Below, one piece after another: positions 32,219 to 37,304 of a stretch of DNA of 53,986 bases. The stretch's first letter is position 1; each line of letters opens with the position of its first letter. This DNA comes from ANME-2 cluster archaeon (GTDB taxonomy: Archaea > Halobacteriota > Methanosarcinia > Methanosarcinales > Methanocomedenaceae), in contig JAHYIS010000012.1 in assembly GCA_019429385.1 (NCBI GenBank), positions 1 to 53,986 on the forward strand, in the 5' to 3' direction. Both the position numbers and the translations under genes were made by a program. The notes beneath the pieces are model-generated. The model made no database searches. It was given only the letters and a program-made list of their open reading frames with translations, and had not been told where the DNA came from.

Positions 32219-33064
32219 TTATTTGAAATCGATTGAAATTGAATTATATTTTACATATCCTTTGAATTGGGTATCCGGCAAATCTCTATCTGTTAAGGCA
32301 TCTGCCCATCCTTCACCAGTAAGTAAGGACGATGCACTGGTTTCAACCTGGAGATACATTGTATAATAATGACCCGATTCAAGATATACATTTTGTGTGG
32401 AGGAAAAGCTTTTGTCTTTATTTTCATACCAAGGTTTTGCCGATGAAGACCAATGATATATTTGTTGCGTATTTTTTACTTGACCTGTAGTTCCATCCCA
32501 CAATATGGCAGTAACAGTCATTTCAGAAGAAGCTGCAAGTATATTCCCTGAAGATGTTTTTATCCATCCTGGCATTTTGATGTCAGCTTGTTGACCACCT
32601 GTCCCTGAAACGTAGAATTCTTTGCCAATCTGTGTCCATCCCCATTCGCTTGAATATCCTGGAGTTGCACGGCTTGTAGCTTCTGCTTTTCTTTCAGACG
32701 TATAAAAGTGAGCATCACTGTTGCCTGTTCCCAATCCCCCATTATCATTGTTTCCCCAGTCTGCGGTGGTAAAAGTCGTATCAGTACCTAATGGGACATC
32801 TGTGCAAGTATTTATAGATATTTCACCATTATTGATAGGCAGTTCTTTTTGAGACTTTTCCAGCGATTTTTTAATAGAATTCTCCATTTCTTTTTTAGAA
32901 GTGGTTTGAAGCTTTTCTAATTGCTTTTGCTCTTCATGAGTAGTGCCTTGGTCATTTATCTTCTGATCTGTGGTGGCCATACTTACAGTGGGTACAAACG
33001 CAATGTTCATAATTAACATCACCGCAAGCACCGCACATAATTGCATTCCTTTATTTCGTTTCAT
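32219..33064 (-). CDS. Exported protein of unknown function (unit 1)
   Basis: This 281-residue protein has a signal peptide MKRNKGMQLCAVLAVMLIMN with a cleavage-like VSMA near 30. A charged coiled segment (about 35-75) is followed by a beta-rich domain with GWTQIGKEFYVSGTGG and YYTMYLQVETSASSL. The mature domain matches no family I know and is probably secreted or surface-held. It is preceded by a ~165-nt conserved leader. Its signal peptide resembles that of the unit-2 protein, while the mature parts do not. The start ATG has GGAGG nine bases upstream. Confidence 0.75.
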   Translation of the reverse strand: MKRNKGMQLCAVLAVMLIMNIAFVPTVSMATTDQKINDQGTTHEEQKQLEKLQTTSKKEMENSIKKSLEKSQKELPINNGEISINTCTDVPLGTDTTFTTADWGNNDNGGLGTGNSDAHFYTSERKAEATSRATPGYSSEWGWTQIGKEFYVSGTGGQQADIKMPGWIKTSSGNILAASSEMTVTAILWDGTTGQVKNTQQIYHWSSSAKPWYENKDKSFSSTQNVYLESGHYYTMYLQVETSASSLLTGEGWADALTDRDLPDTQFKGYVKYNSISIDFK

Positions 33065-33266
33065 ATTCTTATTTCCTCCAAATTATTTCTCCCGGAGGCA
33101 AAACAAGCAAGTTTTAAATACATTTAAAGCTCCTATTATATTGCCTTCGGGCATAGTGGGGTTGCGGCCTGATCTTTAGCGATGTATGCCTAAATCCCAC
33201 CTTCTTTTCATGTACTTGATAATTGAATCAGTACAGCAAACCATACTCATGCACACTATATAAATA
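33065..33266 (-). promoter_or_regulatory. Promoter and structured mRNA leader, copy 1
   Basis: A TATA element (AATATTTATATAG) at 33254-33266 would start a leader of about 165 bases. In 5'-3' order on the minus strand: hairpin TGTACT-GAT / AT-C-AAGTACA (33210-33234); strand GTGGG (33195-33199); strand GGCATA (33184-33189); CCCAC (33155-33159) directly next to TATGCC (33149-33154). The last four form an H-type pseudoknot. Nearer the gene, CCTCC (33093-33097) is complementary to the Shine-Dalgarno GGAGG (33074-33078). The class of RNA is not recognised. Confidence 0.65.
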
Positions 33267-33610
33267 TTTTGTTTTTTTTCAGAAATATTATCATATAATT
33301 ATATATATTCTTACTAATATATCGGATATATAGTAATATATCTATAATTAAAATTGGATAATGTGAATACGCTTTTGGATAATCATTACTTTAATGTCAC
33401 AGACTATAAAATCAAATTTCGATTTAACACTGACGACGTCTTCGGAGAAAAGGAACCGATAAAACTCTGCTTCCATGAATTATAATCTTCACCAAAACAA
33501 CCCTTCATGCGTGGTCTGTTAAGTGATGAAACGTGAAAAATTACCGTCCTTTTAGTAAATTATTGATTGAAAACAAGATATTATATCTGGTGAAAATTCC
33601 CAGTACACCA

Positions 33611-33861
33611 TTAACCTACAGCCTGCACCAGCCCGAATCCATATACATTATCTCTCGCAGGCACTCCCAGATCGATCGCACCATTAGCCATTGCAGCCCT
33701 GACCTCATCAGGTGAAGCTCCACCATTATCCTGTAACATCAGCGCAGCCACTCCGCTCACAAAAGGCGCTGCCATCGAGGTCCCGTTCATTGAACCATAC
33801 CCTCGGTACAGCCATGGGAAATCGATACCCCACCCGGCGCAGCCAGCTCAACTTTGCTGCC
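33611..33861 (-). pseudogene. Truncated and frameshifted subtilase 3' end, copy 1
   Basis: On the minus strand the sequence encodes the last ~83 residues of an S8 protease, including the catalytic-Ser segment GTSMAAPFVSGVAAL and the ending GFGLVQAVG. One base is missing near the APGV segment compared with copy 2, breaking the frame. The Asp and His parts of the triad are absent. It cannot be a working protease. Confidence 0.8.
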
Positions 33862-34042
33862 ATGAATTTATTAGAAAACCTATGAATAAGGCAATAAATA
33901 ATTGAATGACTAACAGAATAAATATATACCACCTTGTAGCCGGAATGTGTGATGTGTTAATTATTGATATTCCTATGAAAAACCAAACAGTTATTATAGT
34001 TATTATGACTAACATTTGGACGGTTGTGACTTTCTTTTTCAT
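33848..34042 (-). CDS. Small two-helix membrane protein with a recombinant C terminus
   Basis: From the ATG at 34042 (preceded by GGAG) the frame gives 64 residues with two membrane helices (about 7-29 and 38-60). The last four codons, WQQS and stop, fall within the broken subtilase sequence, so the gene's native end was probably replaced when the repeat joined here. It lies directly after the unit-2 terminator. A TTG 15 bases upstream could also start it. Function unknown. Confidence 0.5.
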   Translation of the reverse strand: MKKKVTTVQMLVIITIITVWFFIGISIINTSHIPATRWYIFILLVIQLFIALFIGFLINSWQQS

Positions 34043-34098: not shown

Positions 34099-34965
34099 TC
34101 AGACCGGTCCATAAGGTATTGGAATATAATGATTTCTATTTAAACCTGCATACGAATCCATTATTCCGTAGTCATATGGCCACCAATTAGTATATTTATC
34201 AACAAACTTACTAATATCACTTATTTCGACCCAGTAATCAAAATCCCCGTCTGGACCCGCATAGATCATATAAACAATTCCAATAACAATTCCAGCAATT
34301 ATTGCAGCACCTGCCGTGGCTGCTACAGTAAGGGCGATACCAGCTGCAAATAATGCTACTAATATAGCTGCTGTTAAGGTTGGTATACCTATAAGTACAC
34401 TTCCATTAACTACATTGGGTGAAAACCATATTCTTAGGTATCCATCCTCAACCCACACCTCAAATTTAGCGTTTCCATGATCTCTTAATGCAGCTACATC
34501 ATACTCGGTTAGAGCTTTTGTTTTATCATAGGCATAACCAGTAACTCTTACATTCTCCCCTATATGTTGGACTGTAAGAAGTTCTTTATCCTGGCCTGAT
34601 TCTATCAAATATAACTCAGTGTCATCTGTCTTAGACAAATGGGTCATTTTAACCTTTTGTTTGGATATTTTTCCATTTGCATCAATCGTTGGAACTGTGA
34701 TAATCTTATCATCACCAACTTCTATAATTGGATAATCTTGTTTTGCAAGGTCTTTGAACATTTTCTTCTGATCTTCAGTCATTAATGCTTCAATTTCTTC
34801 ATCAGATAGATTTTCAATATCTGATAAAGTAAGACTTTGGAAATTCGATATATCGAACTGATTATTCTCAAATTCAGCTTTTGCACTCACTGCAGGCACA
34901 AACGCCATACCTACAATCAGCATCATAGCAAAAACAGCTCCTAGCTTCATACTTTTACTTTTCAT
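34099..34965 (-). CDS. Exported/membrane protein with Gly-Ala-rich helices (unit 2)
   Basis: The 288-residue protein has a signal peptide (MKSKSMKLGAVFAMMLIVGM, cleavage near AVSA), an acidic segment (about 40-75), a beta-rich middle (about 76-185) and two very hydrophobic helices rich in Ala, Gly and Ile (about 190-235). The C terminus has many Tyr, Trp and Asp. The hydrophobic pair could insert in a membrane. No family is recognised. It is led by the second copy of the leader and ended by a strong terminator, so it forms a single-gene unit. Its signal peptide is related to unit 1; its mature part is not. Confidence 0.75.
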   Translation of the reverse strand: MKSKSMKLGAVFAMMLIVGMAFVPAVSAKAEFENNQFDISNFQSLTLSDIENLSDEEIEALMTEDQKKMFKDLAKQDYPIIEVGDDKIITVPTIDANGKISKQKVKMTHLSKTDDTELYLIESGQDKELLTVQHIGENVRVTGYAYDKTKALTEYDVAALRDHGNAKFEVWVEDGYLRIWFSPNVVNGSVLIGIPTLTAAILVALFAAGIALTVAATAGAAIIAGIVIGIVYMIYAGPDGDFDYWVEISDISKFVDKYTNWWPYDYGIMDSYAGLNRNHYIPIPYGPV

Positions 34966-35169
34966 ATTCTTATTTCCTCCAATTTATTTCTCCCGGAGGC
35001 AAAAACAGCACGTTTTAAATACGTTCAAAACCTACATTATATTCCCTTCGGGCATAGTGGGGTTGCGGCCTGATCTTTACCGATGTATGCCTAAATCCCA
35101 CCTTCTTTTCATGCACTTGATAATTGAATCAGTACAACAAACCATACTCACACACACTATATAAATATT
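34966..35169 (-). promoter_or_regulatory. Promoter and structured mRNA leader, copy 2
   Basis: The TATA element (35157-35169) and leader closely match copy 1. Pseudoknot strands are GTGGG (35097-35101) with CCCAC (35057-35061), and GGCATA (35086-35091) with TATGCC (35051-35056). CCTCC (34995-34999) can pair with GGAGG (34976-34980). In the first hairpin one stem base changes so that a U-A pair becomes U-G, keeping the stem. The secondary TGCC / GGCA hairpin seen in copy 1 is weakened here, which favours the pseudoknot. Confidence 0.65.
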
Positions 35170-35764
35170 TTGTTTTTTTTTCAGAAATATCGTTATATAA
35201 TTATATATATTCTTACTAATATATCGAATATATAGTAATATATCTATAATTAAAATTGGATAATGTGAATACGCTTTTGGATAATCATTACTAGAATTTC
35301 ACAGACTATAAAATCAAATTTCGATTTAACACTGACGACGTCTTCGGAGAAAAGGAACCGATAAAACTCTGCTTCCATGAATTATTATCTTCACCAAAAC
35401 ACCCCTTGATGTGTGATCGGTTAAGTGATGAAACGTGAAAAATTACCGTTCTTTTAGTAAATTATTGATTGAAAACAAGATATTATATCTGGTGAAAATT
35501 CCCAGTACACCATTAACCTACAGCCTGCACCAACCCGAATCCATATACAGTATCTCTCCCAGGTACACCCAGGTCGATCGCTCCATCAGCTATTGCAGCC
35601 CTGACCTCATCAGGTGAAGCTCCACCATTGTCCTGCAACACCAGCGCAGCCACCCCGCTCACAAAGGGAGCCGCCATCGAGGTCCCGCTCATTGAACGAT
35701 ACCCCCCGTCCAGCCATGTGGAATAGATACCCACACCCGGCGCAGCCAGTTCGACTTCGCTGCC
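34966..35764. repeat. ~0.8-kb direct repeat, copy 2
   Basis: This is the second copy of the leader-promoter-subtilase-end segment (see 33065-33861). Differences between copies are scattered single-base changes plus short indels. It extends in coding sense a little further into the subtilase fragment. Confidence 0.85.
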
Positions 35765-35812
35765 GTCTGCGCTCCAGGATACTACCATGGTATTCTGGTC
35801 ATTTGAATCGGA
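35513..35812 (-). pseudogene. Truncated subtilase 3' end, copy 2
   Basis: The minus strand is open for about 99 codons and encodes the C-terminal part of an S8 protease with SWSADGSEVELAAPGVG, the Ser motif GTSMAAPFVSG and the end GFGLVQAVG. A stop codon lies directly upstream of the open stretch (about 35813-35815), and the Asp and His active-site regions are missing. The ATG at 35788 has no clear ribosome-binding site. It is a remnant that keeps its reading frame, unlike copy 1. Confidence 0.8.
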
Positions 35813-36543: not shown

Positions 36544-37101
36544 TTATTCAGCTCCGTATAAAAATTTAATACCATCTTTATCATCGAGATTTAATGTTCT
36601 TCTGTAAGTAACTCCTAGACCCCCGAATCCATACATTGTTTTTATTACATCATGTGGTCCATACAGGTCACCTAAATATAAGAAGTGACCAAATTCATGA
36701 GTAGCTACATCCTGAACATCATGTTTATTGCTTTCCCCTGTTGTAGACCAGGATAAATCGCCATTAAATGTCATTTTAACTGAGGTAATCGTTGTCCCAA
36801 TTCCTTCAACATCTGTCTTTGCTTGTGGTCCACCGGTTCCAAGACTTTTTTTGAAAATGTTTGCAGTCCAAAAATCCTCTTTGATCCTGAACGTTGAACC
36901 AGCTGAATCCCAAGTAGATTCAGCATTTCTTATAGGGTCTTTCCATGATGAGGGTATCGACTGGTACCAATCCCATCCATAATATGCTTTATTTGCATCC
37001 CACTTATATCCTGGAGCATCATATGCACTCGCAGGTATTGATGAAAATAGTATTAGCAATGCAACAAAAAATGTACTTAATAGCATTTTTCTATTTCTCA
37101 T
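36544..37101 (-). CDS. Secreted matrixin-like zinc metalloprotease (unit 3)
   Basis: This 185-residue protein has a signal peptide (about 1-26, ending SSIPASA) and a zincin domain. The zinc motif is THEFGHFLYLGDLYG near 135-149, an HExxHxxxxxD/H variant in which the third ligand would be Asp146 or the following PHD His. A Met-turn candidate, TMYGFGG, follows. The length fits a minimal matrixin (M10-like) without propeptide or hemopexin. It would act outside the cell. The third copy of the structured leader precedes it. Catalytic Glu is present. Confidence 0.75.
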   Translation of the reverse strand: MRNRKMLLSTFFVALLILFSSIPASAYDAPGYKWDANKAYYGWDWYQSIPSSWKDPIRNAESTWDSAGSTFRIKEDFWTANIFKKSLGTGGPQAKTDVEGIGTTITSVKMTFNGDLSWSTTGESNKHDVQDVATHEFGHFLYLGDLYGPHDVIKTMYGFGGLGVTYRRTLNLDDKDGIKFLYGAE

Positions 37102-37304
37102 ATTCTTATTTCCTCTAAATTATTTCTCCCGGAGGCAAAACCAGCAAGTTTTAAATACGTTTAAAGCCCACATTATATTGCCTTCGGGCATAGTGGGGTT
37201 TCGGCCTGATCTTTACCGATGTATGCCTAAATCCCACCCTTCTTTTCATGTACTTGATAGTTTAATCAGTACAGCGATTCATAACCAAACAAACTATATA
37301 AACA
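37102..37304 (-). promoter_or_regulatory. Promoter and structured mRNA leader, copy 3
   Basis: The leader is conserved while DNA upstream of the TATA element (37293-37304) has diverged strongly from copies 1 and 2. Pseudoknot strands are intact: GTGGG (37233-37237) with CCCAC (37193-37197), GGCATA (37222-37227) with TATGCC (37187-37192). The first hairpin keeps its stem but has a different loop. The Shine-Dalgarno is AGAGG, so only four pairs with CCTCC remain. Internal CGG / CCG pairing of the pseudoknot loop is possible here and in copy 2. Confidence 0.65.

What the first reader, a model, noticed from the sequence alone, without database searches (positions are those of the whole stretch)
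33065..33240. Candidate new structured cis-regulatory RNA with an H-type pseudoknot, in three copies
Three mRNA leaders (33065-33240, 34966-35145, 37102-37290) share an invariant arrangement: GUGGG, five bases, GGCAUA, about 24 bases, CCCAC, UAUGCC. The strands pair as 1-2-1'-2' with the two 3' strands adjacent, which is a coaxial H-type pseudoknot. A hairpin lies 5' of it and keeps its stem despite a U-A to U-G change (copy 2) and a changed loop (copy 3). In copy 3 the DNA upstream of TATA has diverged while the leader has not, so the leader appears to be under selection. The layout resembles a riboswitch, but I cannot match it to TPP, fluoride, cobalamin, c-di-GMP or other classes I know.
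Basis: partly seen in the sequence, partly recalled or inferred. Interest (0 to 1): 0.82.

Follow-up and report, generated by a model that had tools for sequence, protein, structure and literature searches.

The report
Shared RNA switch on secreted-protein genes
Methane-cycling archaea put the same folded RNA leader, absent from the Rfam library searched, in front of dozens of otherwise unrelated genes for exported proteins, where it can hide or expose the ribosome landing site, and in one species a known small RNA is made from the opposite strand of that leader and binds it.

Summary
The three leaders are real. They lie on the minus strand, 5' of three unrelated secreted-protein genes, and their identity ends sharply just upstream of the predicted transcription start and at the start codon. 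Covariance models extend them to a large family: 100 of 186 genomes of the order (up to 21 copies each), plus 16 sampled genomes elsewhere in the phylum. Nearly all copies precede Sec-signal-peptide genes.

The fold is not an H-type pseudoknot. The second pseudoknot helix pairs no better than shuffled (47.8 vs 45.8% of cells). What covaries is: hairpin P1 (9/9 pairs with double-sided changes); long-range helix P3 (GGCA...UGCC) around hairpin P4; and a competing anti-Shine-Dalgarno/Shine-Dalgarno helix P5. P3 and P5 exclude each other, giving a translational on/off platform.

No Rfam family covers the sense strand. Known Rfam sRNA162 (Methanosarcina mazei) is the antisense transcript of one member: its mapped start falls on the conserved GGC, and its 5' 65 nt bind that leader in vitro.

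Verdict: a structured leader family not found in Rfam or the papers searched, most likely a translational switch for the secretome; trigger (antisense RNA, ligand or protein) unknown. Pseudoknot rejected; 'new cis-regulatory RNA' supported.

The parts
33065..33235 (-). Leader RNA copy 1, predicted transcription start (about 33235) to the base before the ATG (33064)
   Evidence: TATA box about 26 nt upstream of 33235 (sequence); identity with copy 3 is high only inside this block. TSS inferred, not measured here.
33258..33265 (-). Predicted TATA box (TTTATATA) of leader copy 1
   Evidence: Sequence; conserved in the three copies
33207..33230 (-). Lineage-specific 5' hairpin (GUACUGAU...AUCAAGUAC), copy 1, approximate ends
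   Evidence: Stem kept by G-U or compensatory changes in L044, L045, L046
33093..33201 (-). Core conserved element, copy 1
   Evidence: CM match 89.8 bits with R1 and 77.1 bits with R2
33192..33200 (-). P1 5' arm, copy 1
   Evidence: All 9 P1 model pairs show changes on both sides in A5
33156..33163 (-). P1 3' arm, copy 1
33143..33152 (-). GCC-CGAA-GGC: P2 hairpin in the off state; its GGC belongs to P3 in the on state
   Evidence: Near-invariant over 96 sequences; P2 itself has little covariation
33138..33146 (-). P3 5' strand, copy 1
   Evidence: P3 extension: 4 of 4 pairs with double changes in A5 and in A6
33096..33103 (-). P3 3' strand (UUUUGCCU), copy 1
33112..33129 (-). P4 hairpin, copy 1; the opposite strand reads as an archaeal TATA box (TTTAAATA 33113-33120, +)
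33094..33098 (-). Anti-Shine-Dalgarno strand of P5 (CCUCC), copy 1
   Evidence: Covaries with the SD over 52 leaders
33075..33079 (-). Shine-Dalgarno (GGAGG), 3' strand of P5, copy 1
33143..33143 (+). Position homologous to the RACE-mapped start of sRNA162; putative antisense start, copy 1
   Evidence: Homology only (PMC3510493); no transcript data for this organism
32219..33064 (-). Secreted protein, 281 aa, no Pfam match, gene of copy 1
   Evidence: N-terminus MKRNKGMQLCAVLAVMLIMNIAFVPTVSMA
34994..35102 (-). Core element copy 2; its GGC is GGG, which weakens P2 and P3 and is predicted to favour P5
   Evidence: CM 80.9 bits, folding
34099..34965 (-). Secreted protein, 288 aa, no Pfam match, gene of copy 2
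37130..37238 (-). Core element copy 3; predicted to sit in the P3 (open) state
   Evidence: CM 94.3 bits, folding
36544..37101 (-). Secreted M10-type metallopeptidase, 185 aa, gene of copy 3
   Evidence: PF00413 E=5e-7

Best explanation
A structured 5' leader family of methanogen and methanotroph-related archaea that gates translation of exported proteins. Shown here: (1) the conserved unit is the leader of secreted-protein genes; (2) it folds as P1, then P3 enclosing P4, with the CCU of the P3 3' strand also able to pair with the Shine-Dalgarno (P5), so P3 and P5 exclude each other. Inferred: (3) P3 leaves the SD open (on); P2+P5 closes it (off); (4) anything that captures the shared P2/P3 segment GCCCGAAGGC removes P3 and pushes the leader to off. 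An antisense RNA of the sRNA162 type, which starts on exactly that GGC and covers P1+P2, would do this in cis and, because the segment is shared, possibly on other leaders in trans. sRNA162 binding to one leader is published; the switching step and the generality of antisense control are inference.
For: Distribution: 100/186 genomes of the order, up to 21 copies each; 0 hits with R1 in the class outside the order, but with R2 16 genomes elsewhere in the phylum; of the 34 matches aligned from those loci (the set includes two leaders of the window's own genome and one antisense-strand match) 30 have a signal-peptide gene downstream. Structure: 17/25 pairs with changes on both sides, 225 double-changed cells vs 79 shuffled, 0/500 shuffles; mostly outside-order alignment 20/25 pairs, 147 vs 56. 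P5: nucleotide beside CCUC matches the one beside GAGG in 38/52 leaders vs 24.2 expected, 0 of 20,000 permutations; unique tails 13/24 vs 8.8, p=0.04. Folding of 73 leaders: P3 and P5 anticorrelate (r=-0.85); P5 lowers SD accessibility (r=-0.60); copy 1 near balance (0.54/0.46), copy 2 off, copy 3 on. Signal peptides: 63/73 leader genes vs 9/44 window ORFs. Cassette boundaries. Antisense: sRNA162 lies opposite a member; its target's start was mapped by RACE and its first 65 nt bind that leader in vitro.
Against: No expression or probing data for this organism. P2 has almost no covariation of its own. P5 is weak in the large f5 group, whose leaders have CCUGAUGAGG in place of CCUCC. P5 significance shrinks when near-identical tails are merged. 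SD-containing leaders are partly constrained by the 16S rRNA match alone. The P3-P5 anticorrelation in folding is partly built in, since they share bases. Overproducing the sRNA162 5' fragment gave no obvious phenotype (PMC3510493). Alignments A5 and A6 were fitted to the model, which favours its helices.
Confidence: 0.6

Rival explanations
1. A metabolite riboswitch: P1 with its conserved purine-rich loop and the GCCCGAAGGCA core form a ligand pocket, and P3/P5 is the expression platform.
For: Near-invariant bases in and around the core (CCC, R-A, AGGCA, UA), compact fold with covarying stems, SD-sequestering geometry.
Against: Regulated genes share only export, not a pathway. The P1 loop varies in length and sequence. 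No candidate ligand and no binding test.
Confidence: 0.2
2. A binding site for a protein (envelope or secretion sensor, SRP/Sec-linked factor) or a stability/localisation element for mRNAs of exported proteins.
For: The one shared property of the regulon is Sec export: 63/73 by a strict rule and 30/34 in the mostly outside-order set. Leader and signal peptide travel together while mature proteins are unrelated.
Against: Does not by itself predict anti-SD/SD covariation. The abundant Methanosarcina S-layer gene, also exported, has no match.
Confidence: 0.15
3. Primarily a DNA-level antisense promoter: the conserved 3' half is kept because its other strand is BRE+TATA driving an antisense RNA that starts at the conserved GGC; the sense folding is a by-product.
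For: On the antisense strand an 8-mer with at most 1 mismatch to TTTAWATA is found in 69% of leaders vs 8% shuffled, and the best 8-mer is centred 26-28 nt from the sRNA162 start position in every one. sRNA162 is constitutively transcribed from there in M. mazei (PMC3510493).
Against: P4, P3 and P1 covary as RNA helices, including at the TATA position itself (col 106-112: AU 37, GC 29, GU 8). Many members carry CTTAAGTA, a poor TATA. The fixed spacing follows from the fixed RNA architecture. No conserved terminator across the family was shown.
Confidence: 0.1
4. H-type pseudoknot riboswitch as first proposed.
For: Perfect in the three copies; one same-genus relative shows a compensatory change (GGCACG/UGUGCC).
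Against: Broken in L045 (same genus) and L103 (own genome), 5/6 in L044, absent elsewhere; 47.8% of cells paired vs 45.8% shuffled over 96 sequences, 10 of 94 at pair 13-67. It competes with P2.
Confidence: 0.03
5. Recent duplication or gene conversion without function.
For: Copies 1 and 2 lie in a segmental duplication, 94-95% identical over 700 bp upstream.
Against: Distant relatives keep the structure through compensatory changes. Copy 3 is alike only in the leader.
Confidence: 0.01

Closest known systems
sRNA162 / sRNA171 (Rfam RF02792), Methanosarcina mazei (PMC3510493)
   Same: Its first 65 nt are the reverse complement of a member of this family (P1 + GCCCGAAGGC); matches to RF02792 overlap members on the other strand in several Methanosarcina-type genomes and in G184 of another genus.
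   Different: Described as a small RNA restricted to Methanosarcina, not as the antisense of a leader family. The leader family, its fold, its distribution and its link to exported proteins are not in that paper.
Translational riboswitches with SD sequestration (general class)
   Same: Structured 5' leader, mutually exclusive helices, anti-SD strand captured by an upstream helix.
   Different: No ligand known; regulon defined by protein export rather than a metabolic pathway.
Long structured slmA1 S-layer leaders of Methanosarcina (PMC3361143)
   Same: About 155-nt leaders in front of a surface protein in the same genus.
   Different: No match to this family at the S-layer (PF07752) genes tested in a genome of M. 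acetivorans size.
Temperature-responsive leaders of Methanolobus psychrophilus (PMC5378194)
   Same: SD masked by leader structure in a related methanogen.
   Different: Described for single genes such as Hsp20, without a shared conserved element.

Membership tests
sRNA162 (RF02792) | Same strand and sequence reach the family's gathering score | tested here: not met
   No RF02792 match at gathering score in the window or on 8 loci with the leader; overlap is on the opposite strand
sRNA162 (RF02792) | Antisense relation to the leader at the sRNA start | tested here: met
   L097: element 1553-1452 (-), sRNA162 from 1501 (+); five further loci likewise
Any Rfam cis-regulatory family | Match at gathering score | tested here: not met
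   permissive scans gave nothing convincing on the leader's sense strand
H-type pseudoknot riboswitch | Two interleaved helices conserved by covariation | tested here: not met
Translational cis-regulatory leader | Located between transcription start and SD/start codon of a gene | tested here: met
   TSS of one homologue mapped by RACE (PMC3510493)
Translational cis-regulatory leader | Conserved secondary structure with compensatory changes | tested here: met
Translational cis-regulatory leader | Alternative helix that sequesters the SD | tested here: met
   covariation; folding; weak in the f5 group
Riboswitch | Specific ligand binding that changes expression | not testable with these tools
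   Needs binding and reporter assays
RNA thermometer | Temperature-dependent opening of the SD | not tested
   No temperature series was computed or measured

The most novel reading that the evidence does not exclude
One conserved stretch of DNA encodes both a translational switch (sense leader) and the promoter and start of its own antisense regulator. As all leaders share the paired segment, antisense RNA from a few loci would set translation of the whole secretome in trans: a self-encoded riboregulatory network present since before the split of two methanogen lineages.
Probability: 0.2. Interest if true: 0.85.

Novelty: new variant of a known kind. Interest (0 to 1): 0.77.

Why it matters
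It would be an RNA regulon, not described in the sources searched, that covers many exported proteins of a major methane-cycling archaeal group, in genetically tractable hosts (Methanosarcina). It gives a ready explanation for the unexplained leader target of sRNA162, one of the few studied archaeal small RNAs, including why its target seemed to lack a ribosome-binding site. Few cis-regulatory RNA families are known in archaea (general knowledge), and one tied to protein export rather than a metabolite would be unusual.

Tried and rejected
Known Rfam families on the sense strand: none. P2 as the main helix: little covariation and an outer-pair break in about 10%, so P3 is preferred. S-layer gene slmA1 as a member: no match. 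Leader in viral contigs: one pattern scan, 0 matches. Protein-based search for relatives of gene 1 found only one locus. Raw covariation scores also list non-pairing column pairs (e.g. 122-140) that separate the f5 group from the rest; these are lineage signals, not structure. Papers searched for an earlier description: none found, but subscription journals are mostly missing from that library; the original M. mazei transcriptome paper was not among the results.

Full report
WHAT WAS CHECKED. The three stretches were read on both strands. The arrangement GUGGG-5-GGCAUA-24-CCCAC-UAUGCC is there in all three. Alignment of the three loci shows where likeness ends: copy 3 is 93% identical to the others in the core, 86-92% in the 5' hairpin and 93-96% around the SD, but 72-73% at the promoter, 56-57% and then 35-36% further up, and about 21-30% by codons 31-50. 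The proteins are unrelated beyond the N-terminus; one is an M10-type peptidase. So the conserved unit is the transcribed leader, not a gene family and not a block of DNA. Copies 1 and 2 also share 94-95% identity over 700 bp upstream, a recent segmental duplication, so they count as nearly one observation.

HOMOLOGUES. A DNA search of 60 relatives gave clear matches in the same genus and family and partial ones in the order, with a shared core GCCCGAAGGCA. From 19 sequences RNAalifold proposed a hairpin and a long-range helix that I had not put in. A covariance model (R1) found matches in 100 of 186 genomes of the order, 17 of 27 genera, up to 21 copies per genome, and none in the class outside the order. 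A second model (R2) built from 96 members found five clear copies in the window's own genome and, in an even sample of the phylum, 16 genomes outside the order. Of 34 matches aligned from 32 loci (30 of them outside the order, two own-genome leaders, one match on the antisense side), 30 are followed by a signal-peptide gene. That the order is Methanosarcinales rests on the title of L034 and on the match of one contig length with M. acetivorans C2A (own knowledge); that the outside genomes are methanogens of another class is inference.

STRUCTURE. In A5 (96 sequences) 17 of 25 pairs have changes on both sides, 225 such cells against 79 shuffled (0 of 500), and sliding the partners by one base drops pairing from 91% to about 60%. 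All nine P1 pairs vary with compensation (for example GGGGUUCA/UGAACCCC, GAAGUUCAAA/UUUGAACUUC, GGUGUUCA/UGAACACC, GAACUUC/GAAGUUC). P3 has an almost invariant AGGC/GCCU core, which says little by itself, and a four-pair extension in which every pair has double changes; P4 has double changes in four of eight pairs. The mostly outside-order alignment A6 repeats this (20 of 25 pairs, 147 cells vs 56). Both alignments were made by the model and lean towards it; the counts are not corrected for phylogeny.

THE PSEUDOKNOT. Helix 2 is complete in the three copies and in L046 (same genus, with a compensatory change), 5/6 in L044, and broken in L045 (same genus) and L103 (own genome). Across 96 sequences 47.8% of cells pair against 45.8% shuffled. 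A local pseudoknot in one lineage is not excluded; as the defining fold it is.

EXPRESSION PLATFORM. The CCU of the P3 3' strand continues into CCUCN, which pairs with the Shine-Dalgarno. Combinations seen: CCUCC/GGAGG, CCUCU/AGAGG, CCUCG/CGAGG, CCUCAU/AUGAGG, CCUUUU/AAAAGG and, outside the order, GCCUCA/UGAGGC and GUCUCC/GGAGAC. The base beside CCUC matches the base beside GAGG in 38 of 52 leaders (24.2 expected; 0 of 20,000 permutations), or 13 of 24 unique tails (8.8 expected, p=0.04). P3 and P5 cannot coexist. Folding 73 leaders gives mean P3 0.76, P5 0.19, with SD accessibility falling as P5 rises; in the window copy 1 is near balance, copy 2 (GGG for GGC) is predicted closed, copy 3 open. 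P2 (GCC-CGAA-GGC) is the natural partner of P5 but has almost no covariation of its own.

GENES. By a strict signal-peptide rule 63 of 73 leader genes pass, against 9 of 44 window ORFs, two of which are themselves leader genes; several of the ten failures read as signal peptides by eye. The typical start is MK-x-KxG-M-x-LGALLAAMLLVSMAFVPAVSA. The S-layer genes tested are not members.

THE KNOWN NEIGHBOUR. A permissive Rfam scan gave a weak antisense match to sRNA162 (alignment). RF02792 matches in Methanosarcina-type genomes repeatedly lie opposite members of this family, and at the strongest one the element occupies L097 1553-1452 (-) while sRNA162 starts at 1501 (+). The published work (PMC3510493) mapped the start of the target MM2442 by RACE, found a 65-nt overlap with the sRNA, and showed by gel shift and footprint that the sRNA's first 65 nt bind the leader; sRNA171 binds it too. 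Placing that start on L097 puts it about 12 nt upstream of P1. The authors saw no ribosome-binding site; here a TTG 42 nt upstream of their start gives a full signal peptide with SD GAGGTG and anti-SD CCUCUU. The other strand of P4 reads as BRE+TATA at the right distance from the sRNA start in most members. Because P4 also covaries as RNA, and many members have a poor TATA (CTTAAGTA), I treat antisense transcription as shown at one locus type and only possible elsewhere.

MECHANISM. Best supported: a translational switch of exported-protein mRNAs with P3 (open) and P2+P5 (closed). The trigger is not identified. Antisense pairing to GCCCGAAGGC would close the switch without touching the SD; ligand or protein binding to P1/core are alternatives. 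Confidence that the family is real and structured is about 0.95; that it gates translation by P3/P5 about 0.6; that antisense control is general about 0.2.

NOVELTY. No Rfam family covers the sense strand and the papers held describe no such family. It is a new family of a known kind (structured translational leader), with an unusual regulon and an antisense partner.

Noticed in passing
window 33600-33870 and 35513-35788 (-): Two peptidase S8-like fragments lie upstream of leader copies 1 and 2 inside the duplicated block; the second matches PF00082 over its C-terminal part only, so both look like gene remnants.
   Followed up: partly
window 35043-35053 (-): Copy 2 has GCCCGAAGGGA in place of GCCCGAAGGCA; the change breaks one pair of both P2 and P3 and is predicted to lock the leader closed.
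   Followed up: partly
window 33271-33280 (+), and the same place in copies 2 and 3: A T-run on the plus strand just beyond the leader TATA box is kept even in diverged copy 3; it could end an antisense transcript or serve as an A-rich BRE for the leader promoter.
   Followed up: no
L035, L036, L081, L082, L083, just upstream of the leader TATA: A shared upstream motif of the type AGTTGTCAtAGAAATTATATA suggests a common transcription factor site or BRE context in several lineages.
   Followed up: no
L082 290-364: A 14-15 bp inverted repeat upstream of the leader promoter takes the place of the sRNA162 3' stem with unrelated sequence, hinting at an antisense RNA outside Methanosarcina.
   Followed up: partly
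L097 1425 (-): The MM2442-type gene probably starts at a TTG 42 nt upstream of the start used in PMC3510493, which supplies an SD and a complete signal peptide.
   Followed up: partly
leaders of genus g9 (L037, L038, L039, L041): This group has GCGCCUGAUGAGGG in place of UUUUGCCUCC: P3 is kept but P5 is largely lost, so regulation may differ there.
   Followed up: no
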